A stretch of 33,575 bases of DNA from assembly GCA_947627555.1 (NCBI GenBank), contig CANQWL010000003.1, forward strand, positions 1 to 33,575, in the 5' to 3' direction. This DNA comes from an uncultured Clostridia bacterium (GTDB taxonomy: Bacteria > Bacillota > Clostridia > TANB77 > CAG-508). Below, piece after piece: positions 1-27,831 of this stretch (within the stretch, counting starts at the first letter, position 1; each line of letters starts with the position of its first letter). Both the position numbers and the translations under genes were made by a program. Under the pieces are notes generated by a model that saw only the letters and a program-made list of their open reading frames with translations, was not told where the DNA came from and made no database searches.

Positions 1-301
1 CCGCAAATATTAATACAGCACCTATTAAATATGGTATCATAGTCTTTTTATATTCAGCTTTTTCTTCAGCACTACCTAACATGTACTTAATACCTAAAAC
101 TACTAATATTGCAACAGATACAATAGAACCTATAGCTTGTATAGCACCTATTACTTTTTTACCAAAAGTATCAAAAGATGTTGTAACTGTTCCTTTTAAG
201 CTTGAAGGGTCTGTAACTGCATATACATTACTAAAGATAGATAATAAAAAAATTACTATCATAACAATATTTAAAACTTTTAATAATTTTTTAGTGTTCA
301 T
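1..301 (-). CDS. VirB2/TrbC-like T4SS pilin-type small membrane protein (3' end cut by window edge)
   Basis: Manual reverse translation from ATG at 301-299: MNTKKLLKVLNIVMIVIFLLSIFSNVYAVTDPSSLKGTVTTSFDTFGKKVIGAIQAIGSIVSVAILVVLGIKYMLGSAEEKAEYKKTMIPYLIGAVLIFA..., open to position 1. SD aaaggagg upstream. Shares GIKYMLGSAEEKAEYKxTMIPYxIG with 823..1254. Absent from the ORF track because it has no stop in the window. Confidence 0.85.
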   Translation of the reverse strand, partial: MNTKKLLKVLNIVMIVIFLLSIFSNVYAVTDPSSLKGTVTTSFDTFGKKVIGAIQAIGSIVSVAILVVLGIKYMLGSAEEKAEYKKTMIPYLIGAVLIFA

Positions 302-374
302 AATTTTAACCTCCTTTTATTAGTATATTTTATTATATATTAAATTTTCTCGTATTCTGAGAAAATGTTAATAA

Positions 375-761
375 CTATTTAAAAGCTAATATAACTGCTT
401 TCCATATTGCAAATGCTCCAAATACAACAATACATCCTATAATAAAAGGAATCATAGATTCTTTTATTTGTGCTTTATCTTCAGCAGCAGCAGTTATGTA
501 TTGTACTCCTAATATAGTGGCATATATAACTGCGAGAATAATACCTAATCCTAATAAGATATTATATATTGAATCAGATACATTTTTTATACCACTAGTA
601 GAAAGTTTAACAGATTCAGTACTAGATGCATCTATGAAGGAATCTCCTCCTGAAATTATTTCATCTAATTCAGAACATAAAGATATAGGAGTATATTTAA
701 TTATAAAGAATAATATTATAAATAATATTATAAATAATTTTTTTAAAATATTGTAACTCAT
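375..761 (-). CDS. VirB2/TrbC-like T4SS pilin-type small membrane protein
   Basis: 128 aa, signal/TM N-terminus, two C-terminal TM segments, motif YITAAAEDKAQIKESMIPFIIGCIVVFGAFAIWK related to neighbours; SD ggggagaag. Confidence 0.75.
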   Translation of the reverse strand: MSYNILKKLFIILFIILFFIIKYTPISLCSELDEIISGGDSFIDASSTESVKLSTSGIKNVSDSIYNILLGLGIILAVIYATILGVQYITAAAEDKAQIKESMIPFIIGCIVVFGAFAIWKAVILAFK

Positions 762-822
762 ATCTTCTCCCCATTTTATTATATATTAAAATATTAAAAA
801 AATCAAGTTTTTTAAAAAAGAA

Positions 823-1254
823 TTAAGAGTGAATCGATGTATATATTGCACCTACAATTGTACTAGCCATAAATACTAAAATACATCCAATTATATATGG
901 AATCATTGTACTTTTATATTCAGCTTTTTCTTCTGCAGATCCAAGCATATATTTAATTCCAATTACAACTAAAGCTCCAACAGAAGCGATACTTCCTATT
1001 GCTTGTACTATTCCTATATATTTGTTTCCTAGTTTTGTAGAGGCAGTATCTAATTCTATTTGTGAGGGAGTAAAATCATCAGGAACAATTTCTGAAGATT
1101 GAAAAGAAGCTAAAAATGTTAAAGCATCTGCAGACTGCGAGGAATCGGAAAATGTCGTAACTTGAGTTGCACGTGCAGCATAAACATTAGTAGTACATAT
1201 AATTATTAAAATAAATAATAAAAATAAAAAAGAAATTATTTTTTTAAAAGTCAT
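823..1254 (-). CDS. VirB2/TrbC-like T4SS pilin-type small membrane protein
   Basis: 143 aa, signal peptide-like N-terminus, GIKYMLGSAEEKAEYKSTMIPYIIGCILVF motif; SD aaagga. Confidence 0.75.
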   Translation of the reverse strand: MTFKKIISFLFLLFILIIICTTNVYAARATQVTTFSDSSQSADALTFLASFQSSEIVPDDFTPSQIELDTASTKLGNKYIGIVQAIGSIASVGALVVIGIKYMLGSAEEKAEYKSTMIPYIIGCILVFMASTIVGAIYTSIHS

Positions 1255-1450
1255 AATTTATCCTTTCTTAAATAAAATTTATTCTTATATAATAAATATT
1301 ACATATTTTTTTATTTTTGGCAATACTTTTTTTAAAAATTTATTCAAAATGAAACAAAAAAGTTTGTTTATTACAAAAATATTACAATTATATTAAAAAA
1401 ATATTATTTTTAGTAAAATAGTTACTTTTTATATGCTTTTTTGATATAAT

Positions 1451-1459
1451 GTATGTAGT
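1451..1459 (+). promoter_or_regulatory. Putative extended -10 promoter element for the T4SS operon
   Basis: TGATATAAT about 30 nt upstream of the SD aaaggagga and ATG at 1490; -35 not clear. Confidence 0.45.
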
Positions 1460-1489
1460 TATATTAGATTTATCAAAGGAGGATTTTAT

Positions 1490-1849
1490 ATGGGTACATA
1501 TTATATACCTAGAAATGTCAAAGGAGAAGGTAGAATATTATTTATATTTACTGGAAAATCACTGATGTATACTGCAATAGGAGCAGTAGTTGGATTTCCA
1601 ATTTATTTTGTTATATCTCATATTCTTAATATACAATATTGGGGAATACTTGCAGTATTAGTATGTGGTCTGATAGGGTTTATTATAGGTACTCTAAAAA
1701 TACCTAAAATATCTATACTAAAAAATGTTCAAGATATAGCAGGAGAAAATATTGATGAAATTATAAAAAGATATATAAAATTTAGAAAACAAAAAAATAA
1801 AATATATATTTATGAAACAGAAGAGGAGGTAAAGAATAATAATGTCTGA
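1490..1849 (+). CDS. PrgI family (VirB3-like) membrane protein
   Basis: 119 aa, MGTYYIPRNVKGEGRILFIFTGKSLMYTAIGAVVGFPIYF; position directly before VirB4-type genes; strong SD. Confidence 0.7.
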   Translation: MGTYYIPRNVKGEGRILFIFTGKSLMYTAIGAVVGFPIYFVISHILNIQYWGILAVLVCGLIGFIIGTLKIPKISILKNVQDIAGENIDEIIKRYIKFRKQKNKIYIYETEEEVKNNNV

Positions 1850-3071
1850 TAAAGTACAACAAATGAGCAATATATTAATTATAATATTAGGTATACTAGC
1901 GTGTATTCTAGTTATATTAATAATCATTTATTTTGTTATGAAACGTAAAGAAAATGATTCATTAAAAAGAAAAGATGAACAACTAAAAAGAAAAGATGAA
2001 CAACCTGAAAAAGAAAACAAAAATAAAAGTAATACAAATACACAAATGTTGCAAAAAGAATCAATTACAAAATTTATGGAATTTGATAAAGTAGAAGACA
2101 ATATGATTATACAAAAAGGTGGAAAAAGATTTATTATGGTAGTAGAATGCCAAGGAATTAATTATGACCTTATGTCTGAAATGGAAAAGACAGGAGTAGA
2201 GGAAGGATTTATTCAGTTTTTAAATACTTTAAGACATCCTATTCAAATTTACATACAAACCAGAGCGGTAAATCTAAATGATAGCATACAAAAATATAAA
2301 GCAAGTATTGACCAAATTGAAATGGAATTAAATAAAAAGCAAATAGAATATGATCAAATTAAAAAATCTAATAAAGCATCACAAAAAGAAATTGATTCAG
2401 CATTTTTTGAATTAACAAAAAAGAAAAATTTATATGAATATGGAAAAGATATTGTAAAAAATACTGAAAGTATAAGTTTAAATAAAAATGTTTTAACAAA
2501 AAAATATTACATAGTTATACCATATTTTTCAGAAGAAGCTTCAAAAGAAGAATATACTAAAGATGAAATACAAAATATGGCATTTTCTGAATTATATACA
2601 AAAGCACAATCAGTAATAAGAACATTATATGCATGTAGTGTAAGTGGTAAGATATTAAATTCATATGAATTAGTGGAATTATTGTATTATTCATATAATA
2701 GAGAGCAAGCAGAGGTATATGGACTTAATAAAGCAATACAAGCTGAATATGAAGAATTATATTCAATAGCACCAGATGTTATTGACAAGAAAGAAAGAAT
2801 TTTAGATAAAAAAATACAAGAAGAAGCAATGAAACTAGCACAACAGGAAACAAATAGAGTTAGAACAGAAAAACAAAAAAAATATGAAAAGAAAAGTAAT
2901 AGCATGCAAAAAATGATACAAGATATGGCACAATTGATTATTGAAGAGAATAGGTCGTACATAGAACAAGATGTTGCTGATGAAGCTATAGAAAATATAA
3001 AAAAATTAATAGAAGATCAAAAAGAAGGAGGAGAAAATAATGTGGGGCAAGAAAAACAAGAAATTAAATGA
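1842..3071 (+). CDS. T4SS protein resembling the N-terminal region of TraC/VirB4 proteins, TM-anchored with coiled coil
   Basis: 409 aa: N-terminal TM, then FDKVEDNMIIQKGGKRFIMVVECQGINYDLMSEMEKTGVEEGFIQFLNTLRHPIQIYIQTR and long coiled coil; start overlaps PrgI end, 3' end overlaps VirB4 start. Confidence 0.6.
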   Translation: MSDKVQQMSNILIIILGILACILVILIIIYFVMKRKENDSLKRKDEQLKRKDEQPEKENKNKSNTNTQMLQKESITKFMEFDKVEDNMIIQKGGKRFIMVVECQGINYDLMSEMEKTGVEEGFIQFLNTLRHPIQIYIQTRAVNLNDSIQKYKASIDQIEMELNKKQIEYDQIKKSNKASQKEIDSAFFELTKKKNLYEYGKDIVKNTESISLNKNVLTKKYYIVIPYFSEEASKEEYTKDEIQNMAFSELYTKAQSVIRTLYACSVSGKILNSYELVELLYYSYNREQAEVYGLNKAIQAEYEELYSIAPDVIDKKERILDKKIQEEAMKLAQQETNRVRTEKQKKYEKKSNSMQKMIQDMAQLIIEENRSYIEQDVADEAIENIKKLIEDQKEGGENNVGQEKQEIK

Positions 3072-5004
3072 AACTGAAACTCAAAATCAGCTTAACATAG
3101 AAGAACAAAATAAAGTTTTTTTAAAAAGAAAAACTATAAAAGAATTAATTGCTCCTGATGGAATAGATGTTAGAGACATATCTAATTTAAAAATTGTATC
3201 AAGCACAACTAAATATGCAAAAAGTTTTTATGTTTCAGTTTTACCTAGAGTTTGTACATTTCCTGAAATATTTAGAGATATGTACTTATTTGGAGATGTA
3301 AATACATCTATTTATATTAATCCAATTCAAGAATCTAGATCACAAAGTGAATTAAATAGAGTTATAAATGAACTTGAAACAGAAAGAATTGTTGCAGCAG
3401 ATAGAGGAAATATAAACAGAGAGAGTCAGTTAAGTCAAAAAAGATTTGAAGCTGAGCAATTAAGAGATGAAATTGCAGCAGGTTTTAACAAAATGTTTGA
3501 AGCTTCAGTAATTTCAACAATATTTGCTTATAGTTTAGAGGAATTAGAGAAATACACAAAATTATTAACTACAGAAATGTCAAAATCATTAGTAGAAATT
3601 AAAAGCGCATGGGGAATGCAAGAAGATGCATTTAAATCTAATTTGCCATTAATGGATGATAAAATTAAGAAAATACATGCTTTTGATAGAAGATCTATGG
3701 CAACAGTATTTCCTTTTACAACATCTGAAGTAGGTCATGCGACAGGTGTTCCTTTAGGATTTAATAAACAAACAGGAACTCCAATTTTATTTGACAATTT
3801 TCATCCATCATTAACAAATTATAATATGGTCATATTTGCTAAATCTGGTGCAGGAAAATCTGTTACAATGAAAACTCTAATTTCTAGATCATCAGTTCTT
3901 ATGGGAATTGAAAGTTTAGCTCTAGATGCCGAAGGAGAATATAGAATTGTTTCAGAAAGTTTAGGAGGAATAAATATTGTTTTAAGCCCTAATTCTTCAA
4001 CAATAATTAATGTGTTTGATGTAGAAACAGAATTAGTAAAAGATGAAATAACGGGAAAAGAGAGACAAGTTTTAAATATAGAAAATAAAGTAGAAGATGT
4101 AACACAAGCATTACTTACTATGGCAAGAGGATCAACTAGAAGTAAAGAAGTAAATGAAATTACAAAACAAATTATATCAGAATCAGTTGCAGAAGAATAT
4201 GCAAGATTAGGAATTAGAAATGATCCTGCAAGTTTATATGAGGCAAGTGGAAATAATGCAAGTGGACAACTATTTAAAAAGAAAAAGCTAATGCCAACTA
4301 TAGGTTCTTGGTATAGGAGAATACTAATAAAAGCAAAAGAAAATACAAATCCTGATTATAATTTCCATTATAGTTATTTAGCAAAAGTAATGAAACAATA
4401 TATAAGAGAATATGATGGTCAAATGGCATATTTTGATGGACAATCTACATTTGAATTATTAGATGGAGCACCATTTATAAATTTAGATATTTCGCAACTA
4501 GAGGAAAGATTTGCAAGACCGCTAGCACAACAAATATTACTTTCTTGGATTTGGGAAAAATACGTTAAGAAAAATAGTGAAGATAGGTCTAAAGCAAGGA
4601 AAAAAAGAGTAATTGTCGATGAAGCGTGGATGTTACTTCCATATCCAGAAGCGGTAGATTTTTTAAATACAATGGCAAGACGTGCCAGAAAAAGAAATGT
4701 TTCTCTTGCTATTATTTCACAAAGATTTCAAGATTTCTATGAAAAACCAGAGGCACAAGCAGTACTTACATCATCAGATACAAAATTATTCTTAGCACAA
4801 GATAAATCTGAAATACAATATTTAAAGGAAGTATTTAAATTAAGTGAAGGAGAGGCAGGATTTTTAATAACTTGCTTAAAAGGTGAGGGATTATTAAAAG
4901 TAGGTTCTGATACAGCTATATTACAAATAAAACCAACTAAAAAAGAATTTGAATTTGTAGAAACAAACTTGAATAAATTAATTGAAATGAATAAAAGCAA
5001 TTAA
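3040..5004 (+). CDS. VirB4/TrbE-type T4SS ATPase
   Basis: 654 aa; Walker A FAKSGAGKSVTMKTL, Walker B KRVIVDEAWMLL, ARRARKRNVSLAIISQRFQDF motif; SD gaaggagg. Confidence 0.92.
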   Translation: MWGKKNKKLNETETQNQLNIEEQNKVFLKRKTIKELIAPDGIDVRDISNLKIVSSTTKYAKSFYVSVLPRVCTFPEIFRDMYLFGDVNTSIYINPIQESRSQSELNRVINELETERIVAADRGNINRESQLSQKRFEAEQLRDEIAAGFNKMFEASVISTIFAYSLEELEKYTKLLTTEMSKSLVEIKSAWGMQEDAFKSNLPLMDDKIKKIHAFDRRSMATVFPFTTSEVGHATGVPLGFNKQTGTPILFDNFHPSLTNYNMVIFAKSGAGKSVTMKTLISRSSVLMGIESLALDAEGEYRIVSESLGGINIVLSPNSSTIINVFDVETELVKDEITGKERQVLNIENKVEDVTQALLTMARGSTRSKEVNEITKQIISESVAEEYARLGIRNDPASLYEASGNNASGQLFKKKKLMPTIGSWYRRILIKAKENTNPDYNFHYSYLAKVMKQYIREYDGQMAYFDGQSTFELLDGAPFINLDISQLEERFARPLAQQILLSWIWEKYVKKNSEDRSKARKKRVIVDEAWMLLPYPEAVDFLNTMARRARKRNVSLAIISQRFQDFYEKPEAQAVLTSSDTKLFLAQDKSEIQYLKEVFKLSEGEAGFLITCLKGEGLLKVGSDTAILQIKPTKKEFEFVETNLNKLIEMNKSN

Positions 5005-5023
5005 AGCAAAAAAGGAGGAAAAG

Positions 5024-8000
5024 ATGAAACTAAAAAATTATAATATAGTACAAAAGATAGCAATAGTATTGGTTTGTTTAGTAGTATTTAACTTTATTAC
5101 ACCTACATATGTATCTAATGCTAGTTTAGGTGGAGTTTTATTTTCTCCAATAAAAGAATTACTTGTTACTATGGGAGATATTGTATTAGATTTAATAGAT
5201 ATGGGATTTACTGGAAAATTTGAAAATGTAATGAAAGAAATGTTAGCATATAGAAAAGCGGGAGATGAAAATAATAGATTTACTGGCGATGATGATGAAA
5301 GAGAAATATTAATGTCTAAAGTAAGTTTAGAGTCTATATTTTCAAATAACGTAGAATTTTTAAATGTTGATTTTATTAATCCTATTAATGAAGATGATTA
5401 TACAGTAAAAAATAAAAGTACAACAGAAGGATTAACATCATTAAGAAAAATAATTGCTGCTTGGTATGTAGCAATTAGGAACTTTTCTTTAGTTATAATG
5501 CTTTCTATATTAGTATATGTAGGAATTAGAATTATTATTTCTAGTGCGGCATCAGATAAAGCTAAATATAAGCAATTATTGCTAGATTGGATTGTTGGAA
5601 TGTGTTTATTATTTATGTTGCATTATGTAATGTCTATTTCTATTATGATTACAGAAAAAATAACAGAAATGTTATCTGATGCTACTTCATCTGGAATTGA
5701 TTTACAGAAAGAAGATATAGATGGACCGACTGAATTAATAGGAGATGAATTTATTATTGGTACAGGTGATAATAAGATTACATACAAAAAGGGAGATAAT
5801 GTTAAGAAACTACAAAATATTTCACAATATGTGAGGTATTATGCAGATTTGAGGCAAGATTTGGCAGAACAATTTACATATCTTATCATATATTTATTTT
5901 TAGTTGCATATATAGTAATATTTGCAATAAGATACATGAAAAGGATGGTTATAATGGCATTTTTAACGATGATAGCACCTTTTGTTGCAATGACATATCC
6001 TATAGATAAAATGACTGATGGAAAAGCACAAGCATTTAATTTCTGGTTTAAAGAATACATATTTAATTTACTAATACAACCATTTCATTTAATTTTATAT
6101 ACTATATTGGTTGGAACATCTGCAGAATTGGCAACTTCAAGTTTAATTTATGCATTAGTTGCAATTGCTAGCTTACTACCAGCTGAAAAATTATTAAAGC
6201 AAATGTTTGGATTTGACAAAGCACACACACCTCCAGGAATTGCAGCACCTGCTATGGCTACAGCTTTAGCTAACCAATTAACAGGAAAAGCAAGAGGAGC
6301 TATAGCCGGAAGTAAACATTCTAACAATAGTAATATAAATACGAAGAATGAAGGAAAATCTACTGCTCAACAAAAAACAAGAACAGCAGACTATAATTTC
6401 GATAGTTTCAATTCTACAGATGCACAAAATGAAGGTGGAGATATTTATAAACCTTCTGGTGGAATAAATGAGAATGATAGCAATGCTTCTAATTTAGCAT
6501 ATGGAAAAAATTATAATAATGATGAATTAGAACAAATGGAGGAAGGACTAAAACTTGAAAAAGGAACATTAAATAGTCCATATAGCCCAAATGAGCTAGA
6601 TGATATAAATGATTATTATGCTATGCAATATGCTGCAAACGAATATAATAATAGAGATACTATTCCAAATAATGAAGATACACGAAGTATGTTAGATAAT
6701 AACCCAAGTACTGAATTTGCTAATTCTTTAAATTCTGCTTTGAATAAAGGAAAAAATGATGAAAACAAAGATGAAAATAAAAATGCAAATAATGTTACAA
6801 ATCAAAAATTATCTGAACAAGGAAAATCTGGTAACAAATTAAAAAGAGGACTAAAAAATGCAGGTAAAATAGGAGCATATGGAGTAAAGAAAATAGCAAG
6901 ACCAAAAAATATTCCAAAAGGAATAAAATTTGTAGCAAAAGCAGGATTAGGAGTAGCAGGAGCACTTGGAGGAGGAGCAGCAGGATTAGCATTAGGAGCT
7001 TTAACTGGAAAACCTTCAATGGCATTTTCTGCAATGGCTGCTGGTGCTGGAGTTGGTGGCAAAATGGGAACAAAAACAGTAGACAAAGCTGTTAGTGCAG
7101 GTGGAAAGGTAGTAAGAGCTGGCAGAAATGCAATAGATTCTGCATCTAACTTTAAAAATGAAGCTTTATATGGTGAAAGAGAAGCATACGAGAGAAGAAA
7201 AGAAAAACTAATGGCAAATGAACGTAAAAGTTATGCAAAAAATACTCAAAATAGAGATTATTTCCAACAAAAAACAGGAGCTGAAGGTGACGAATTAGAC
7301 AAAATTATGAATAGTGCAGCACAATTTAATCAAATGGGTGTAAAAGATAATGATGAAATATTAAAAGCATTAGAACTTGAACAAATTTATAAAGAAGATT
7401 ATAACATGAATGATCAACAAGCACACCAACTTGCTGGAATTTCTGCTAAAATGGTTAGCGAAGAAGGATATTCTATATCAGACTTTTCAGATGACAAAAA
7501 GAGAGCAGCAGTACAAAATAGAACAGAACAAATAGTAAAAGATTTTGGTGGAAATCTAAATGAAAATCAACAAGCTAATCTAACACAGCAAATAATGTCA
7601 GGAAACGAGTATATGTCAGGATATCAAAAAAGGCAAGATGATAGAATGAACTACAGAGATAAGCCAAAAAATACAGATAAACATACAGCTGAAGTTATAA
7701 ATACAGATGCAAATAGAAATACAAGTGCAAATAGAGCTATAGATACAAGTTCAAGTAGAAATGCAAGTGCAAATAGAACTACAAATACAACTACAAGTGC
7801 AAATACAAGTAGAGCTACAAATACAACTACAACTGCAAATACAAGTGCCAATAGAGCTATAGATACAAGTTCAAGTAGAAATGCAAGTGCAAACAGAGCT
7901 ACAAATACAAGTTCAAGTAGAACTACAAGTGCAGGTTCAAGTAGAAATGCAAGTACAAATAGAGCTACAAGTGCAAGTTCAAGTAGAAATGCAAGTACAA

Positions 8001-8071
8001 ACAGATCTACAAGAACAAATTCGAATAGAAATGCAAATAAACCTATGGATAACAATGCAAATAGAAAGTAA
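5024..8071 (+). CDS. VirB6/TrbL-like polytopic T4SS membrane protein with long low-complexity C-terminal tail
   Basis: 1015 aa; several TM segments in the first ~420 aa, then a soluble Asn-rich region, a Gly/Ala-rich segment and a repetitive Ser/Thr/Asn/Arg tail; SD aaaggagg. Confidence 0.75.
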   Translation: MKLKNYNIVQKIAIVLVCLVVFNFITPTYVSNASLGGVLFSPIKELLVTMGDIVLDLIDMGFTGKFENVMKEMLAYRKAGDENNRFTGDDDEREILMSKVSLESIFSNNVEFLNVDFINPINEDDYTVKNKSTTEGLTSLRKIIAAWYVAIRNFSLVIMLSILVYVGIRIIISSAASDKAKYKQLLLDWIVGMCLLFMLHYVMSISIMITEKITEMLSDATSSGIDLQKEDIDGPTELIGDEFIIGTGDNKITYKKGDNVKKLQNISQYVRYYADLRQDLAEQFTYLIIYLFLVAYIVIFAIRYMKRMVIMAFLTMIAPFVAMTYPIDKMTDGKAQAFNFWFKEYIFNLLIQPFHLILYTILVGTSAELATSSLIYALVAIASLLPAEKLLKQMFGFDKAHTPPGIAAPAMATALANQLTGKARGAIAGSKHSNNSNINTKNEGKSTAQQKTRTADYNFDSFNSTDAQNEGGDIYKPSGGINENDSNASNLAYGKNYNNDELEQMEEGLKLEKGTLNSPYSPNELDDINDYYAMQYAANEYNNRDTIPNNEDTRSMLDNNPSTEFANSLNSALNKGKNDENKDENKNANNVTNQKLSEQGKSGNKLKRGLKNAGKIGAYGVKKIARPKNIPKGIKFVAKAGLGVAGALGGGAAGLALGALTGKPSMAFSAMAAGAGVGGKMGTKTVDKAVSAGGKVVRAGRNAIDSASNFKNEALYGEREAYERRKEKLMANERKSYAKNTQNRDYFQQKTGAEGDELDKIMNSAAQFNQMGVKDNDEILKALELEQIYKEDYNMNDQQAHQLAGISAKMVSEEGYSISDFSDDKKRAAVQNRTEQIVKDFGGNLNENQQANLTQQIMSGNEYMSGYQKRQDDRMNYRDKPKNTDKHTAEVINTDANRNTSANRAIDTSSSRNASANRTTNTTTSANTSRATNTTTTANTSANRAIDTSSSRNASANRATNTSSSRTTSAGSSRNASTNRATSASSSRNASTNRSTRTNSNRNANKPMDNNANRK
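7695..8050 (+). repeat. Degenerate tandem coding repeat (SSSRNAS-NRAT type) in the VirB6-like tail
   Basis: Repeated units aatagagct(a)... and agttcaagtagaaatgcaagt; near-identical long copies at about 7733-7790 and 7853-7910. Confidence 0.8.
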
Positions 8072-8095
8072 AAATAATTAGGAGAATTATAACTA

Positions 8096-9025
8096 ATGTT
8101 TAGAGATAATAAATTTGTAAGATCTATAAATAGAAATAGAGAGATTATTATTTTAGTAATAGCTATGATTATATTTGGTTTTTTTATAATAAGAGCACTT
8201 AATGATGAGGCAAAAAATAATTATAACAAAATTGAAGATAATGATACAAATAATACAATATCAAGTGAAGTAAAAAGGTCTAAAGATACAATTACAACAG
8301 ATAAATCTATAGAAACTACTAAGGCAGATGAAAATTATAATTTAATTAAAAACTTTGTAGACTATTGCAATAAAAATGATATAGATGAAGCATATAATTT
8401 ATTAACACCAGAATGCAAGGAAAATGTATACCCTTCTATTGAAAGTTTTAATAAAAATTATATCCAAGTAGTATTTGAGCAAGAAAAAAAAGTAGAAATT
8501 CAAAGTTGGATAACAAATAAAGGAAAGTATACATATTTAGTTACTTATACAGGTGATATTATAGCTACAGGGGATAATGAGGAAAAAGAATATCAAGATT
8601 ATATAACAGTAGATTATGAAACAAAAAAAATAAATATTAATAAATATATAGGTAGGATAGAAAAAGAAATAGAGAAAGAAATAAATAATATAAATTTTAA
8701 AATAGATTATATAGACCTATATAAAGATTATGAGGTATATCATCTAAAAGTAAGTAATAAAAATGATACACAAATTATATTGGATAATCTTAGTTCAACA
8801 TCAAATACATATATAGAAACAGACAAAGAGAAAAAAATAAATTGTTCAAATTATGAAGCGGGAATTAACGCATTTAAATATGATGTAGGTGTAAGTAAGG
8901 ACATAAAGCTAAAATTCATGAAACAATATAATGTTGACATAGTAGATGAAAAATTAGTTTTTTCTTCAACAATTTTAAATACGGATAATCCAGAAGAAAC
9001 AGAAACTATAACCATAGAATTATAA
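8096..9025 (+). CDS. Single-TM T4SS accessory protein with NTF2-like (VirB8/TcpC-like) domain
   Basis: 309 aa; N-in TM, then LIKNFVDYCNKNDIDEAYNLLTPECKENVYPSIESFNKNYI...TYLVTYTGDI pattern typical of NTF2-like folds; operon position. Confidence 0.5.
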   Translation: MFRDNKFVRSINRNREIIILVIAMIIFGFFIIRALNDEAKNNYNKIEDNDTNNTISSEVKRSKDTITTDKSIETTKADENYNLIKNFVDYCNKNDIDEAYNLLTPECKENVYPSIESFNKNYIQVVFEQEKKVEIQSWITNKGKYTYLVTYTGDIIATGDNEEKEYQDYITVDYETKKININKYIGRIEKEIEKEINNINFKIDYIDLYKDYEVYHLKVSNKNDTQIILDNLSSTSNTYIETDKEKKINCSNYEAGINAFKYDVGVSKDIKLKFMKQYNVDIVDEKLVFSSTILNTDNPEETETITIEL

Positions 9026-9055
9026 TTATAATATATTTTATATACAGGGGAAATT

Positions 9056-11554
9056 ATGGAATTAAAAGATATAGGAAATGCATTAGGCAAGGAAGCAAAG
9101 GATAAAATAAAAAAATTTATAATAAGAAAAATTGCCATACCTGCAATGGCATCTGTTATGGGTATTGTATTAATAGCAGGAGTTTTTATGGTAATAACAG
9201 AAGCCATAAAGGATGCTGCAGGAAAGGTTGCAGAAGCTGCTTCATCAGTATTTGGAGGAGAATTTGATAATACTCAAGACCTTCCTACTATTACTATAAG
9301 TGATGACCTTATTGAAGAAATAAAAAAGCAATTAACTGAAGATGCAATTGATATAGATTCAACATATTTAACGGACAAACTATTAAAGAAATCATTAGAA
9401 GCATATTATGCTACACAATATCCGTATATTGAAGGCGCAAATTATACAGATGATGTAGTTAAAGGATGTATTTATTTAAAAAGAAATGACAATGATTTGA
9501 AATATATTAACTATAATAATTTTAAAAATTATTTAGGAGATAATAAAAGTGAATCAGATTTAGAAAATGCAAAAAAAATTTTTTCTATGGATGACAATGA
9601 TAATATAGTTGTTGTTACATGGTCTAAAAGCGTAAAAAGTGTTGAAAATACAGAAAATGGAAATAAACAAGGTGGCACAGAAGGCGGATATTCAATTACA
9701 GAATATAAAATAGATCAAAAAAATTTAACTTCATCATATGCAATGTCATACAAATTACCTATATTGCTTGCAAATCTATATTCAAATGAAGGCTTTGGAA
9801 TAGCAGTTGCAGAGCTAGGAATTAATTCGAAAATAGAATTGACAGTATTAGATAATACAACAAAAACAGAAACAGAATCTAAAGAATATTTTAAAATGAA
9901 TTATAAGGCAAGTGGAACGTGTGAATGGCAAAGTATAGGTGGTCCTGTTAGTAAAAATTTTGAAGACTTAACATGGACAGAAGATTATACAACAAATCCA
10001 TATAAAATTACAACACAAATAACCGAAGAAAATTCAATAACCATACAACCAACATTACTGGATACTTGGGTAGCAAAAGGTGAAGTTTCTGATATTACTA
10101 CAGATGAAAAAACTACCTCTAATGCTGACAATCCTGATTCAACAGATTTATCTAATAATCCACAAGATTATACAGCTGATCCTACTATATCACTTACACC
10201 AGAACAACAAAAGCAAATAAATGATCAAATGCTAGAGGAAAAAGATGAAAAAACAGGAGCGATTGTTCCAATTATAAAAAATATAAATGCTACAATCTAT
10301 AAAAAAATGACAGACCATAAATCTACAACGACAACAACTACTACAGAAACAACAACTACAGCTTCTGATATGGAATTAGAAGATAATACAGATGGATTTT
10401 TAGCTTTAATAAAAGCAAATAATAAGGGTGAATATGATTCAGAAGGCAAATTGGTTAAATACGTAAAGAAAGAAAATTCTGATGATACTAAAGAAGATGT
10501 TGAAAGCGAATTTTTAAGTTCTATAGATATGGTAATAGAAATATTAGAAAGAGATGATGAGGTTTCTGATTATGCGAACACAATGAAATATATTTATTAT
10601 AAATATACAAATGATGAAGATTATAAAACTGAATTAGATTTTTCTGCTTATGGTAAAAGTAATTTTACAAGTAATAAAAATAATATTTCTGCAGATGATT
10701 TTATAGTAAAAACTGATGAAACCAATGCTGCACCAACAGTTCCAAAGGATCAATTGGAGAAGGGATTAAAAAAATGGGTTTCAGGTAGTCAACAAACAAA
10801 TGCATTAAAAGTTTTAGACAAAGTAATAGAATATGAAAAAACATACAAAGTAAATGCAATATTTACTTATGCAATAATGCGATATGAATCTGGTGTAGGA
10901 ACTGCAGATAGTAGTTGGGTAAGAGAAAATAACTGGATGAGTTTAACAAGTTTAGGGCACATACAATATTCATCTCCTCAAGCAAATATTGAAAAATACT
11001 GCGATATTATAGCAAACGGAACGTATTATTTTAAAGCAGGTATATATAATTTATATGGAATAGGAGATATTTATAATGGTTCTACTTCATGGTCAGACAT
11101 AGTGAAAGGTTTTATGGTAGATTTGTATAATGATTGTGATGTAAGTTTAGATACAACATCTACTGGGTCTGCTGGGTCTACTGGAGGAAATCAAGGAATT
11201 GTAGAAACTGCTAAATCTAAAATGGGTTGTCCATACGTATATGGTGCAAAAGGTCCGAATACATTTGACTGTTCAGGTTTTGTATATTGGGTATATCAAC
11301 AACATGGTATAAGTGTTCCAGGAAGTACAGCTTTATATAAGCCATATAAAAATTCAAAAATAGAGATATCATGGAATGAAGCCCAACCAGGAGATATATT
11401 GCTTGTATTTGCGGAGGAAAGAGGCACAACTAATGGTCATGCAGCAATTTATTTAGGAGATAATAAATATATTCATGCACCTCAAACAGGAGATGTTGTA
11501 AAAATATCAGAAGGAGCAAAATCATCATTTAAACATGTTTTTAGATTTAAGTAG
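9056..11554 (+). CDS. T4SS-associated bifunctional cell-wall hydrolase: glucosaminidase/lysozyme-like domain plus C-terminal NlpC/P60 peptidase
   Basis: 832 aa; TM near N-terminus; VNAIFTYAIMRYESGVGTADSSWVRENNWMSL domain; C-terminal MGCPYVYGAKGPNTFDCSGFVYWVYQQHGI...GHAAIYLGDNKYIHAP (Cys/His of NlpC/P60). Confidence 0.85.
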   Translation: MELKDIGNALGKEAKDKIKKFIIRKIAIPAMASVMGIVLIAGVFMVITEAIKDAAGKVAEAASSVFGGEFDNTQDLPTITISDDLIEEIKKQLTEDAIDIDSTYLTDKLLKKSLEAYYATQYPYIEGANYTDDVVKGCIYLKRNDNDLKYINYNNFKNYLGDNKSESDLENAKKIFSMDDNDNIVVVTWSKSVKSVENTENGNKQGGTEGGYSITEYKIDQKNLTSSYAMSYKLPILLANLYSNEGFGIAVAELGINSKIELTVLDNTTKTETESKEYFKMNYKASGTCEWQSIGGPVSKNFEDLTWTEDYTTNPYKITTQITEENSITIQPTLLDTWVAKGEVSDITTDEKTTSNADNPDSTDLSNNPQDYTADPTISLTPEQQKQINDQMLEEKDEKTGAIVPIIKNINATIYKKMTDHKSTTTTTTTETTTTASDMELEDNTDGFLALIKANNKGEYDSEGKLVKYVKKENSDDTKEDVESEFLSSIDMVIEILERDDEVSDYANTMKYIYYKYTNDEDYKTELDFSAYGKSNFTSNKNNISADDFIVKTDETNAAPTVPKDQLEKGLKKWVSGSQQTNALKVLDKVIEYEKTYKVNAIFTYAIMRYESGVGTADSSWVRENNWMSLTSLGHIQYSSPQANIEKYCDIIANGTYYFKAGIYNLYGIGDIYNGSTSWSDIVKGFMVDLYNDCDVSLDTTSTGSAGSTGGNQGIVETAKSKMGCPYVYGAKGPNTFDCSGFVYWVYQQHGISVPGSTALYKPYKNSKIEISWNEAQPGDILLVFAEERGTTNGHAAIYLGDNKYIHAPQTGDVVKISEGAKSSFKHVFRFK

Positions 11555-11569
11555 AAGGAGAATAATTAA

Positions 11570-12877
11570 ATGAGAAAAATAAAGATCACTATTTTAGAAA
11601 TGATCGTTTTAATTATAATTTTGATAGTATCAGTAATAGGTTTAAAATTTAAAAATAATAATAGTAATAACGAAATAATATTAAAAGATGAAGATTTGGG
11701 AGAAGAAATTCAAATTGTAGATGAAGTTACACCAGTAAAAGATGCTAATATATTTTATTCTGTTTCATATACAATAGATAAATATTTTAGTAATTTATAT
11801 GTAAATGATAATTTTACGGAGGAAGAAAAAAAAGAGAAAGCAGTGTATTTATGTAATGTCTTAGATAAAGAATTCATAAAAAATGAAAAAATTTCACAAA
11901 ATACTGTATTAGAGATACTTAAAGGATATCAAGGAGAATTTAAATTTACAGCAACAAAAATGAATCAACTAATTACTAAAAATAATTATCAAACATATAT
12001 AGTGAAAGGTATATTAGAAAAATCTGGTACAAATGAATACTTACAAGATTGTTATTTTAAAGTAATAGTTAACAGTGATAATAATACTTATTCAATATAT
12101 CCAATCATGCAAGATATGTATTCAGATATATCCGAAATAAATGTATCTAATAATGATAATATAGAAGAAATAGAAAAAAATAAAGATAATGAATTTATCA
12201 TTTTAACTGTTAATGATGATAATCTTATAAAAAGATATATAGCATATTATAAAAATATGGCATTAAACCATACTGAGATGGCATATGAATTGTTAAATGA
12301 TGAATATAGAAATAAAAGATTTAAAAATTTAGAAAGTTTTATAAAGAATACAAAACAAAATAAAGATGTGATTGATAATATAATTATAGATAAATATAAA
12401 GTAGAACAATATGATGATTATATCTTATATATAGTAGTTGATATATACAATAATTATTACATATTTAAGGAAACTGCTATAATGCAATTTGATTTAATGT
12501 TAGATACATACACAATAGATTCAGAAGAATTTTTAAAAAAATACAATAATGGATCAGAACAATTGAAAGTAGGAATGAATTTAGAAAAAATATTTCAAGC
12601 ATTAAATAGAAAAGATTATGAGTATATTTATAGTAAATTACATGAGCAATTTAAAGAAAATAATTTCCCTACGTTACAAAGCTTTGAAAAATATATGCAA
12701 GAAAATTTCTTTGATATGAATAAGATTACTTATGGAAAATTCGAAGAAAAATCAGGAGCTTATGTATATGAAATAGAAATAACAGATGCGACAGAAACAG
12801 AAGAAAATACAATAGAAAAAAGTTTTATTATCCAATTAGGTGAAGGAACAGATTTTGTAATGTCATTTAATAAATAG
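11570..12877 (+). CDS. TM-anchored protein with multiple NTF2-like repeats (VirB8-like candidate)
   Basis: 435 aa; N-terminal TM; repeated pattern AYELLNDEYRNKRFKNLESFIK / IYSKLHEQFKENNFPTLQSFEKYM resembling the 309-aa protein. Confidence 0.5.
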   Translation: MRKIKITILEMIVLIIILIVSVIGLKFKNNNSNNEIILKDEDLGEEIQIVDEVTPVKDANIFYSVSYTIDKYFSNLYVNDNFTEEEKKEKAVYLCNVLDKEFIKNEKISQNTVLEILKGYQGEFKFTATKMNQLITKNNYQTYIVKGILEKSGTNEYLQDCYFKVIVNSDNNTYSIYPIMQDMYSDISEINVSNNDNIEEIEKNKDNEFIILTVNDDNLIKRYIAYYKNMALNHTEMAYELLNDEYRNKRFKNLESFIKNTKQNKDVIDNIIIDKYKVEQYDDYILYIVVDIYNNYYIFKETAIMQFDLMLDTYTIDSEEFLKKYNNGSEQLKVGMNLEKIFQALNRKDYEYIYSKLHEQFKENNFPTLQSFEKYMQENFFDMNKITYGKFEEKSGAYVYEIEITDATETEENTIEKSFIIQLGEGTDFVMSFNK

Positions 12878-12879
12878 AA

Positions 12880-12926
12880 ATACACCTCCAAGTGTTAGAG
12901 TTTTATTTAACATTTTGGAGGTGTAT
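12880..12926. terminator. Long inverted repeat / putative bidirectional terminator between convergent genes
   Basis: atacacctcca...tggaggtgtat perfect 11-bp stem, extending inward with near complementarity (agtgtta / taacatt). Confidence 0.65.
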
Positions 12927-20056: not shown

Positions 20057-20101
20057 AAAAAAAATATTAAAATAAATTTAATTTATTTTAATATTTTTTT
20101 T
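20057..20101. terminator. Perfect 20-bp stem hairpin with 5-nt loop, bidirectional terminator candidate
   Basis: aaaaaaaatattaaaataaa-tttaa-tttattttaatatttttttt between convergent ORFs. Confidence 0.7.
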
Positions 20102-20265
20102 ATTTTTATGATTTTTGAAATATTTTTTAAATTATTCAAAAAATATTCAATTTCATTTAAAGATTTAATTGTATTTTTTTTATATAATTTAAAATCAAAT
20201 GATTTTTTATAAGAATTATTTTGTCCTCTATTATTTTTATTATCATTTATTAAATATTTTTTCAT
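20083..20265 (-). CDS. Small basic Asn/Lys-rich protein, unknown function
   Basis: 60-aa ORF preceded by a good SD (agaagggtg) on the minus strand; no recognised family. Confidence 0.45.
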   Translation of the reverse strand: MKKYLINDNKNNRGQNNSYKKSFDFKLYKKNTIKSLNEIEYFLNNLKNISKIIKIKKILK

Positions 20266-20311
20266 ACTAACACCCTTCTATAAAAATTATGTAAAATGTA
20301 TATCTTTGTTA

Positions 20312-20653
20312 TATAATATGTAAAAGATAAAAATGGTTTACAACTTTTTAGAAAATTGATATAAAAATTAAAAGTAAGAAATAGATATTTTATATGGGAT
20401 TAGAATGTTTTAGAAGATTTTTAAGAAAAAGCAAAATAGTAAACATAAACTCAAAATAAAACCTCTATAAAACAATAAACTATATTAATATTTCTATGAA
20501 AAATAAGTAAATTAATTTGATATAAGATGAATATTTTTTATTTGCAAATTTTAAAAATAAAATTAAAAGATTATTTTTAAATTTATTTTCTATAAATAAA
20601 TTTAAAATAATATATAATATAAAATAAAAAATATAATTTAGATAATATATAAA
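20312..20653 (+). repeat. RNA-like element copy A: TATAAT (20312-20317), GTTTAC (20336-20341), GTAAAC (20439-20444), downstream hairpin 20575-20607
   Basis: Extensive similarity to copy B; ungapped 97-nt interval between the complementary hexamers. Confidence 0.75.
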
Positions 20654-20908
20654 AAAAATTTAAATAAAATAAATTAAATAATATAATAAAATAAATTTAA
20701 ATAATATAAATTTAAATAAAATAAAAAATATAGTTTAAGATAAATCTAAATAAGAAACATTAAAATAAGATGATTTATTTTTATATCTTTTATATAAGTC
20801 AAAATTAAATAAATTTTTTAAATAATTATTTTAATATTTATTATTATTTCTTAAATTTTTCTTAAATTAATAATTTTTTATAGAAATTAGTAAAAAAAGA
20901 GATTTCTT

Positions 20909-21250
20909 TATAATATGAGAAATGTAAAAATGGTTTACAATTTTTTGCAAAAAATATATATAAATTAATAATATAGAGTACATATTTTTTATGGGATTAA
21001 AATGTTTTAGAAGATTTTTAAGAAAAAGTAAAATAGTAAACATAAACTCAAAATAAAACCTCTATAAAAGGACAAACTATATTAATATTTCTATGAAAAA
21101 TAAGTAAATTAATCTGATATAAAATGAATATTTTTTATTTGTAAGTTTTAAAAATAAAATTAAAAGATTATTTTTAAATTTATTTTCTATAAATAAATTT
21201 TAAATAATATATAATATAAAATAAAAAATATAATTTAGATAATATATAAA
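20909..21250 (+). repeat. RNA-like element copy B: TATAAT (20909-20914), GTTTAC (20933-20938), GTAAAC (21036-21041)
   Basis: Near-identical to copy A from atgggatta onward to gataatatataaa; same 18-nt and 97-nt spacings. Confidence 0.75.
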
Positions 21251-21465
21251 TAAATTTAAAATAAAAAAATAAAAAATATTTTTGATTTTTATTAAAAATA
21301 AAATATTTTTTTATTTAAATATTTTTAAATAGTATTTTATTAAATTTTTCACAAAATAATTATAGAATAATTATAGAAAATATTTAATATTTTTTTAAAA
21401 TTTAGTATATAAAATTTTAAATTTAAAATATTTTTTGTATTTTTGCAAAAAATATGATTTTGTTA

Positions 21466-21625
21466 TATAATGAGTGAAAATGAATATAGTTTACGTTTTT
21501 TTTGGAAATAAGTATAAAAATTAAATAGAAGAGTTAGATTTTTTGTATAGGCTTAAAGGCTTAAAGCTTATTTTAATAAAAATCTTAATCAGTAAACATA
21601 AAACAAAAATAAAAAGGAAAAGACT
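21466..21625 (+). promoter_or_regulatory. RNA-like element copy C: promoter and structured leader of the downstream methyltransferase gene
   Basis: TATAAT (21466-21471), GTTTAC (21489-21494), GTAAAC (21592-21597), again 97 nt apart; followed by aaaaaggaaaagactATG. Confidence 0.6.
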
Positions 21626-22369
21626 ATGAATATTAAGTTAAATAAAGATGAAATAATAGAAGATTTACAATTTAAAAATTTAAAAATAATTCAAAATAAA
21701 AAAGGATTTTGTTTTGGAATTGATAGTATATTATTATCAGACTTTGCAAAAAAAATAAAAGAAAATTCAAATGTTTTAGATTTAGGAACAGGAACAGGAA
21801 TTATTTCTATACTATTATGCGAAAAAACAAAATTAAAAAAAATAACAGGAATAGAAATTCAAAAAGATGTATGTGAAATGGCAAAAAAAAGTATAAAATT
21901 AAATAAATTAGAAAATAAATTTGAAATAATAAATGAAAATATATTAAATTTAAATAATTTAATTGCAAAAAATTCAGTAGATGTAATTGTAACAAATCCA
22001 CCATATAAGAAAAAAAATACAGGAATAATTAATGAAAATGAGAAAAAATTAATTTCAAGACATGAAATTACAGCTGATTTAGAAGATTTTATAAAAGTAT
22101 CTAAAAGTTTATTAAAAGATAAAGGTGAATTTTATATGGTGCATAGACCAGAAAGATTAGTAGACATTTTAAGTTTAATGAGAAAGTATAAAATCGAACC
22201 TAAAATATTAAGACTAGTTTATGCTAATAAAAATAAAGAACCTAAATTAGTATTAATAAAAGGAGTAAAAAATGCAAAACAATTTTTAAAATTGGAACAA
22301 AATTTATATATTTACGAAGAAAATGGGGAATATACAAAAGAAATAAAAGAAATATATAATAATAACTAA
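21626..22369 (+). CDS. TrmN6/YfiC-like tRNA1(Val) (adenine-N6)-methyltransferase
   Basis: VLDLGTGTGIISILLCEK SAM motif and VTNPPYKK (NPPY) motif; directly upstream of rsmI. Confidence 0.85.
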   Translation: MNIKLNKDEIIEDLQFKNLKIIQNKKGFCFGIDSILLSDFAKKIKENSNVLDLGTGTGIISILLCEKTKLKKITGIEIQKDVCEMAKKSIKLNKLENKFEIINENILNLNNLIAKNSVDVIVTNPPYKKKNTGIINENEKKLISRHEITADLEDFIKVSKSLLKDKGEFYMVHRPERLVDILSLMRKYKIEPKILRLVYANKNKEPKLVLIKGVKNAKQFLKLEQNLYIYEENGEYTKEIKEIYNNN

Positions 22370-25737: not shown

Positions 25738-26527
25738 TCATATATTAATTACTTGACTATGTACATCTCTTGAAGCAACACTAAGTAATAAAGAATCTTC
25801 ATTGTAATCATTTGAAATCAATTCATCTATAACTGTTTGATAAGCAAGTTCTGGAAAATTACTTTCTTTACTTAAATGACCAAGCATAGCTGTTTTTAAA
25901 CCGTGATTTTAGTAAATGAGAAATTGTTTTTCCAGCTAGTTCATTTGATAAATGACCAGTAGGACCAGCAATTCTAGACTTTAACAAAAATGGGTAAGAA
26001 GAACATTTTAATACTTCGGGATCATAATTAGATTCTATCAATATAAATAAACTTTCTTCTAAATTTTTCAAAATATCATTTGTCATATGTCCAATATCTG
26101 TTGCGATACTTAATTTTTTGTTACCTTGAGAAATATTAAATCCGCAAGGATTTGCTGCATCGTGAGGAATAGAAAATGGATTAATTTTTAAATCTCCAAT
26201 TTCAAAGTAATCTGTAACCTTAAATTTTTTAATATTTCTATTTTCTATTTTATCTCTTTGTTTAGGCATAGCATCAAGTGTTTCTTGATTAACAAAAACA
26301 GGTAAATCAAATTTTTTGGAAAATGTTCCTAACCCTTGTACATGGTCAGTATGTTCATGAGTTACTAAAATACCATCAATTGTAGAAGGGTCAATATTAA
26401 TGTCAGTTAAAGCAGTTTCTATTTTTTTACTACTTACACCTGCATCTACTAATATTTTGGTATTTTCTGTTTCAACAAATAAACTATTTCCACTACTACC
26501 GCTATATAAACTACAAAAATTTAACAT
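25738..26527 (-). pseudogene. walJ: WalJ/YycJ-type MBL-fold metallohydrolase, frameshifted near 25903
   Basis: In-frame part 25868-26527 (MLNFCSLYSGSSGNSLFVETENTKILVDAG, THEHTDHVQGLG); after a 1-nt shift the frame continues GLKTAMLGHLSKESNFPELAYQTVIDELISNDYNEDSLLLSVASRDVHSQVINI* to 25738. Confidence 0.85.
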
Positions 26528-26555: not shown

Positions 26556-27831
26556 TTATTCTTTTACTCTTTTAATATTTGCACCAATTTTTCTAAATTT
26601 CTTTTCTATGTCTTCATATCCTCTATCAATATGCTCTAAATTATATATTTCTGTTATACCATTTGCTGCTGTTCCTGCAACTACTAGGGCTGCACCTGCT
26701 CTTAAATCTGAAGAATATACTGGAGCACCGATTTAGTTTTTCTACACCTTCGAAAAATGCTGTTTTTCCTTGAGCTGTTATTTTTGCTCCCATTTTGTTA
26801 AGTTCATCTGTATATTGAAATCTAGAATCCCATATACTTTCATTAATAATACTTGTTCCCTCTGCTAAAGATAGTACAACTCCCATTTGTGGTTGTAAAT
26901 CTGTTGGAAAACCTGGATATGGCAATGTTTTTATATTTGCTTTTCTAGGTCGATTGTTACACCAAACTCTAATGCTATCTCCGTTATCTTCTACATTTCC
27001 ACCTATTTCTATGATTTTTGCAGTAATAGATTCTAAATGTTTTGTAATACAATTTTTTAAAGTTAAATCACCTTTTGTTGCAACTGCTGCAAGCATAAAA
27101 GTTCCAGCTTCAATTTGATCAGGAACAACAGAATAAGTTGCATTACCATGTAACTTTTCAACACCATTAATTTTTATAACATCAGTACCTGCACCTCTAA
27201 TGTCTGCACCCATAGTATTTAGAAAGTTTGCAACATCAACAATATGAGGTTCTTTAGCAGCATTATCAATAATTGTTGTTCCTTTTGCTAATACTGCTGA
27301 TAGCATTACATTAATAGTAGCTCCTACAGAGACAATATCCATATATATTGGAGAAGCATGTAATTCTTCAGCTTTTGCATAAATAGTACCTTTTTCTACT
27401 TTTACATTAGCTCCTAGTAATTCAAATCCTTTAATGTGTTGATCAATAGGTCTTGCACCTAATTTACAACCACCAGGCATTCCTACTTCAATTTCTCCCA
27501 TCCTACCAAGCATAGCTCCAATAATATAGTAAGATGCTCTAAATTTACTTGTTAAATCTAATGGTGCTTTTGTTGTAGTAATATTTCTTGTATCGATTGT
27601 AATTGTGTTTTTATCAATCCAAGTGATTTTTGCACCTAATTTTTCTAATATTTCACAAGATATTTTTATATCACTAATATTAGGTAAATTTTCAATTGTA
27701 CAGATTCCGTCAATTAAAAGAGTAGCAGGCAAAATAGCTACTGCTGCGTTTTTTGCTCCACTGATTATAACTTCACCTTTCAATGAAGTGGGACCTGTGA
27801 CTACTAATTTTTCCAATAAAATTACCCCCAT
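26556..27831 (-). pseudogene. murA: UDP-N-acetylglucosamine 1-carboxyvinyltransferase MurA, frameshifted near 26730
   Basis: In-frame 26641-27831 carries typical MurA sequence; removing one base restores [60 protein letters not shown] ending at 26556. Confidence 0.88.

What the first reader, a model, noticed from the sequence alone, without database searches (positions are those of the whole stretch)
20281..21625. Three tandem RNA-like elements with identical architecture in a 1.35-kb near ORF-free block
Seen directly: three units each show TATAAT, 17-18 nt, GTTTAC, exactly 97 nt, GTAAAC (20336/20439, 20933/21036, 21489/21592). The 97-nt interiors align without gaps, including divergent copy C (shared TTTTT, TATAAAAATTAAA, TAGAT..TTTT, TAT.GG.TTA). 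Conserved length despite diverged sequence, complementary end hexamers and a -10 box at fixed distance suggest a family of transcribed, structured RNAs. I do not recognise the family.
Basis: partly seen in the sequence, partly recalled or inferred. Interest (0 to 1): 0.8.

Follow-up and report, generated by a model that had tools for sequence, protein, structure and literature searches.

The report
Tandem copies of a gene leader
The three look-alike blocks are repeated copies of the promoter and leader region of one tRNA-modification gene, not a family of folded RNAs, and they appear to carry a variant of a previously unnoticed two-part DNA element that forms arrays on both sides of the replication origin in this genus of gut bacteria.

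Summary
In detail: all coordinates, hexamers and the 97-nt interiors check out. The RNA-family interpretation is not supported. Copy C is the promoter and 5' leader of a trmN-like methyltransferase gene (21626-22369); the same TATAATATG promoter sits in front of trmN across the genus. A and B are extra copies upstream of it. The nearest species (92% TrmN identity) has two copies. Ten homologous leaders give no consensus fold and no covariation for the end hexamers; Rfam finds nothing; single folds are no better than shuffles. What is conserved is a bipartite motif at fixed spacing. Copy C matches, at 53 nt, a model trained only on elements of other genomes. That family, TAGGC...GTTTACATA, has noncoding spacings peaking at 64 and 75 nt. 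It forms arrays near dnaN-recF-gyrB-gyrA and at trmN, on opposite sides of oriC. In orthologous noncoding copies the words changed at 1 of 112 sites against 14% in flanks, while the interior is free to change. The same words occur in the coding frame of a CpaE-like ATPase gene. I infer a protein-bound DNA element, amplified in tandem; its function is not known.

The parts
20312..20320 (+). copy A: TATAATATG (-10-like box, no clear -35)
   Evidence: promoter scan lists no promoter here; aligned with trmN promoters of the genus
20336..20444 (+). copy A: element from GTTTAC to GTAAAC (109 nt)
   Evidence: model R1 71.1 bits (the model was built from it)
20394..20405 (+). copy A: box 1 (ATGGGATTAGAA), diverged
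   Evidence: alignment A2: GG invariant in 10 leaders
20439..20447 (+). copy A: box 2 (GTAAACATA)
   Evidence: alignment A2: ACATAAA invariant in 10 leaders
20909..20917 (+). copy B: TATAATATG
20933..21041 (+). copy B: element from GTTTAC to GTAAAC (109 nt); repeat of A at spacing 597
20991..21002 (+). copy B: box 1 (ATGGGATTAAAA)
21036..21044 (+). copy B: box 2 (GTAAACATA)
21443..21471 (+). copy C: promoter of the trmN-like gene (TTGCAA, 17 nt, TATAAT)
   Evidence: conserved across the genus
21489..21597 (+). copy C: element from GTTTAC to GTAAAC inside the trmN leader
21548..21600 (+). copy C: two-box element TAGGC...GTAAACATA, 53 nt
   Evidence: two-box matrix trained on 72 elements of 63-76 nt scores 10.9 here; 400 random sequences: mean -18.8, max 6.1
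21626..22369 (+). trmN-like methyltransferase gene, downstream of copy C
   Evidence: Pfam MTS and best NCBIfam match TrmN, below its cut-off
20083..20265 (-). conserved 60-aa ORF of unknown function, divergent from trmN, marks the other edge of the expanded intergenic region
   Evidence: no Pfam family

Best explanation
Shown: the block is an expanded intergenic region between a divergent 60-aa ORF and a trmN-like gene. Copy C is the trmN promoter plus 5' leader; A and B are additional tandem copies of that segment. Shown: homologous leaders in other species keep a two-box motif at fixed spacing (53-54 nt) with freely changing interior and no RNA covariation; copy C also matches a two-box model built from noncoding elements of other genomes of the genus (TAGGC...GTTTACATA, 64 or 75 nt), which form arrays of units some 400-950 nt apart in the oriC region. 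Inferred: the boxes are bound as DNA by one protein complex that tolerates gaining or losing one helical turn (steps of 10-11 nt), and tandem copies spread by recombination; what the complex does (regulation of the downstream genes or origin-region chromosome organisation) is open. A and B are most likely extra or decaying sites rather than RNA genes.
For: Promoter in front of trmN in the genus: 69 distinct TATAATATG promoters, 60 with TTG/TTT at the -35 position. The intergenic region is 41-70 bp in the most compact species and up to 1257 bp when expanded. Sister species has two copies. A two-box matrix trained without any window sequence or 53-nt member finds copy C as best of spacings 40-89. 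Spacing histogram of noncoding elements peaks at 63-65 (42) and 74-76 (63) of 114, with reversed-word and complemented-word controls giving 0 and 1; a scan of 211 genomes with free spacing shows the same two lengths. Orthologous noncoding copies: words 1/112 changed, flanks 224/1589, interior 69/419, P=2.3e-6. Arrays around dnaN, recF, gyrB, gyrA; trmN and gene X lie 41-72 kb apart and diverge in 14 of 15 genomes, with dnaA between them in the three checked. No RNA consensus structure.
Against: A and B score poorly on the two-box matrix (-7.4, -3.5), and box 2 of the type i copies reads GTAAACATA or other variants rather than GTTTACATA, so membership of the window copies in the wider family rests mainly on C. 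The 75-nt words also exist as codons of a CpaE-like gene, so the family may have begun as coding sequence. No binding protein was identified. Arrays are absent from many genomes (65 of 211 have a strict match, including some chance ones). The helical-turn reading rests on three spacing classes.
Confidence: 0.45

Rival explanations
1. Neutral tandem duplication: A and B are non-functional, decaying copies of the trmN promoter and leader in an AT-rich region that expands easily; only C matters, as an ordinary mRNA leader.
For: A and B lack a -35 box; the A/B repeat has ragged edges; the intergenic region varies from 41 to 1257 bp between species and contigs often end in it; the elements seem dispensable, since many species have a compact region without them.
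Against: Box positions are invariant in ten leaders from seven species while the rest diverges; in the related family the words are under strong purifying selection in noncoding copies; type i copies also occur away from the trmN promoter (L077).
Confidence: 0.3
2. The elements are relics of the 3' part of a CpaE/TadZ-like ATPase gene (LGIK...SLHII codons) copied into nearby intergenic regions; spacing 75 is the coding spacing.
For: Coding copies carry TAGGC-75-GTTTACATA in frame; several noncoding copies resemble the host's own gene from TAGGC onwards and beyond box 2; two X-locus copies align to such genes better than all controls.
Against: Similarity starts abruptly at TAGGC and upstream is at the random level; relics would not keep 14 word positions nearly free of change while everything else changes; 64 and 53 spacings are out of frame; type i copies do not align to the gene better than controls.
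Confidence: 0.13
3. A family of transcribed structured RNAs, as first proposed.
For: Own -10 box at fixed distance, conserved length, complementary end hexamers.
Against: No covariation, no consensus fold, no fold better than shuffles, no Rfam match, no terminators.
Confidence: 0.06
4. A short upstream peptide (for example MGLECFRRFLRKSKIVNINSK in A) controls trmN.
For: Open frame in A, B and the sister's A copy.
Against: The frame is broken by stops in C and in the G205, G218, G032 and G173 leaders; A-rich DNA gives such frames easily.
Confidence: 0.03

Closest known systems
Duplicated promoter / 5' leader regions (ordinary bacterial mRNA leaders)
   Same: Copy C has a sigma-70-type promoter and lies directly before a ribosome-binding site and start codon
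   Different: Three copies about 600 nt apart with fixed internal spacing of two boxes
Structured cis-regulatory RNAs (riboswitches and other Rfam leaders)
   Same: Position in a 5' leader, conserved length
   Different: No consensus fold or covariation, no Rfam match, interior free to change
parS sites of the ParAB (Soj/Spo0J) system
   Same: Several sites spread on both sides of oriC
   Different: Sequence unrelated: no parS within 3 mismatches in the window; two boxes at fixed spacing, in arrays
DnaA-box clusters and other origin-proximal protein-binding arrays
   Same: Repeats near dnaN-gyrB-gyrA
   Different: No DnaA box in the window; different words, long spacer, long repeat unit
MITE / REP-type dispersed intergenic repeats
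   Same: Multi-copy intergenic element
   Different: End hexamers are not conserved as inverted repeats; confined to two origin-proximal neighbourhoods as far as searched

Membership tests
Structured noncoding RNA | Covarying base pairs across homologues | tested here: not met
   RNAalifold 0 pairs; end helix no double changes, 88% paired, not above shuffles
Structured noncoding RNA | Match to a known family | tested here: not met
   none, even at E<=1
Structured noncoding RNA | More stable than shuffled sequence | tested here: not met
   z -0.43 to -1.20
Structured noncoding RNA | Discrete transcript | not testable with these tools
   no RNA-seq available
trmN promoter / leader duplication | Same promoter in the same position before trmN in relatives | tested here: met
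trmN promoter / leader duplication | Copies homologous to one another | tested here: met
Two-box origin-proximal element (this work) | Box words at helical-turn spacing | tested here: inconclusive
   C fits the independent model at 53 nt; A and B do not reach it
Two-box origin-proximal element (this work) | Words conserved against flanks in noncoding orthologues | tested here: met
   for the 63-75-nt members (eight orthologous pairs); not tested for the window copies themselves
Two-box origin-proximal element (this work) | Location near oriC, pointing away from it | tested here: inconclusive
   met in 14 of 15 relatives with both loci on one contig; in the window's own assembly the two loci lie on different contigs
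parS | TGTTTCACGTGAAACA | tested here: not met
DnaA-box cluster | TTATNCACA | tested here: not met
Leader peptide | Conserved open reading frame | tested here: not met
MITE | Conserved terminal inverted repeats | tested here: not met
   end hexamers not complementary in several homologues

The most novel reading that the evidence does not exclude
A new class of origin-flanking DNA element: two short words held at 53, 64 or 75 nt (steps of one helical turn), pointing away from oriC on both chromosome arms, amplified in tandem arrays, with one copy embedded in the coding sequence of a CpaE-like ATPase; it would be a binding platform for an unknown chromosome-organising or regulatory protein in a genus of gut Clostridia.
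Probability: 0.2. Interest if true: 0.8.

Novelty: new variant of a known kind. Interest (0 to 1): 0.5.

Why it matters
It turns an RNA-looking puzzle into a testable DNA element with a clear signature. If the wider family is a protein-binding site, it would be an undescribed origin-region element that can be tested by spacing mutants and pull-down. It also shows that conserved length with diverged sequence need not mean a folded RNA.

Tried and rejected
Structured RNA. GTTTAC as a second promoter's -35 (TTTACA-17-TATAAA in A; a similar arrangement in C): the -10 partner is not kept in G205, G032 or G173 on inspection. Small peptides: frames broken. Direct descent of the window copies from the cpaE-like gene: an apparent z of 5 for copy A did not stand out against control DNA. 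parS and DnaA boxes: absent. Phage or plasmid origin: no viral-contig match to a strict pattern, one weak plasmid match. Integron attC and Xer dif resemblance: considered from memory only; the ends are not arranged as in those sites. Three literature searches gave nothing on such an element; absence there is weak evidence.

Full report
Observation. The three units are present exactly as described and are the only such units in the assembly. They are homologous to one another (A/B 87%, A/C 73%). The repeat of A and B is spaced 597 nt, but the strongly similar part is only about 20381-20630. The block has no ORF of 60 aa or more.

What copy C is. Copy C begins with a full sigma-70-type promoter (TTGCAA-17-TATAAT), contains the element, and runs into the start of a trmN-like methyltransferase gene at 21626 (Pfam MTS; best NCBIfam match is TrmN but below its cut-off). 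In relatives the same promoter lies between trmN and a divergent, conserved 60-aa ORF. The region between them is 41-70 bp in the most compact species and up to 1257 bp in others; in about a dozen genomes the 60-aa ORF was not found upstream of trmN, mostly because the contig ends there. In the window, A sits next to the 60-aa ORF and C next to trmN; B lies between. The closest species (92% TrmN identity) has one A-like and one C-like copy.

RNA test. Single folds are no better than dinucleotide shuffles. Ten homologous leaders (A, B, C, two from G175, and G205, G218, G032, G171, G173) give an empty RNAalifold consensus. The end hexamers pair fully only in the window and G175 copies; the other species break pairs and none shows a compensatory change. 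Rfam has no match. The peptide frame of A is interrupted in C and in several other leaders.

What is conserved instead. In the ten leaders, GTT-AC after the promoter, a GG-containing box and ACATAAA are invariant, and the last two are 53-54 nt apart (counted from the sequences). In other species the same intergenic region, and the region upstream of a 241-aa gene (gene X) near gyrA, contain noncoding elements TAGGC...GTTTACATA. A scan of 211 genus genomes with spacing left free shows two sharp lengths, 63-65 and 74-76; in the fetched loci 105 of 114 distinct noncoding elements fall there, while reversed-word and complemented-word controls give 0 and 1 (note that part of these loci were fetched with the same words). 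Arrays of 3-12 copies, about 400-950 nt apart, lie around dnaN, recF, gyrB, a VirB4-like gene, a CpaE-like gene and gene X. Eight orthologous noncoding pairs, the partner located by flanks only, show 1 change in 112 word positions against 14.1% in flanks and 16.5% in the interior (P=2.3e-6). So the words, not the interior, are under selection.

Are the window copies members? A two-box matrix built only from 72 non-redundant noncoding elements of 63-76 nt was scanned over 20281-21625 with spacings 40-89. Its best hit is copy C at spacing 53 (10.9; 400 random sequences: mean -18.8, maximum 6.1). A and B score -7.4 and -3.5. I therefore count C as a probable divergent member and A and B as relatives through C. 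Spacings 53-54, 64 and 75 differ by 10-11 nt, one turn of DNA; this is the basis of the DNA-binding inference, and it is an inference.

Coding link. The CpaE-like ATPase gene of many species carries the same words in frame (LGIK ... SLHII) at 75 nt. Some noncoding copies resemble the host's own gene from TAGGC onward but not upstream, so part of the family may descend from that gene. The window copies do not align to the gene better than to control DNA.

Position. In 14 of 15 genomes with both loci on one contig, trmN and gene X lie 41-72 kb apart and are transcribed divergently; in the three divergent ones that were read through, dnaA lies between (with for the gene X side of G130). A ParA-like gene is also present there.

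Conclusion. The best reading is tandem copies of a trmN promoter-leader segment that carries a variant of an origin-region two-box DNA element. The functional part is not shown.

Noticed in passing
window 1-12900: Cluster of type IV secretion / conjugation-like genes (two VirB4-like parts, a 1015-aa membrane protein, an 832-aa protein with an NlpC/P60-like end) on the chromosome near trmN; judged from the translations only.
   Followed up: no
window 20083-20265 (-): Small ORF (60 aa) conserved next to trmN across the genus, with no Pfam family.
   Followed up: partly
window 26641-27831 (-): MurA-like ORF whose C-terminal end looks out of frame, possibly an assembly error or a frameshift; the neighbouring MBL-fold ORF 25868-26527 may end the same way.
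   Followed up: no
L328-L335, L236: Arrays of 3-10 intergenic units around dnaN, recF, gyrB, gyrA in several species; a VirB4-like and a CpaE-like gene lie between gyrB and gyrA.
   Followed up: partly
trmN promoters of the genus: About 17-18 nt after TATAAT most trmN leaders show GTT or TGTT, even in compact ones without the element; reason unknown.
   Followed up: no
L186 (G167), L236 (G169): Elements at the trmN locus and at the gene X locus of the same genome can be very similar, which suggests copying between the two loci.
   Followed up: partly
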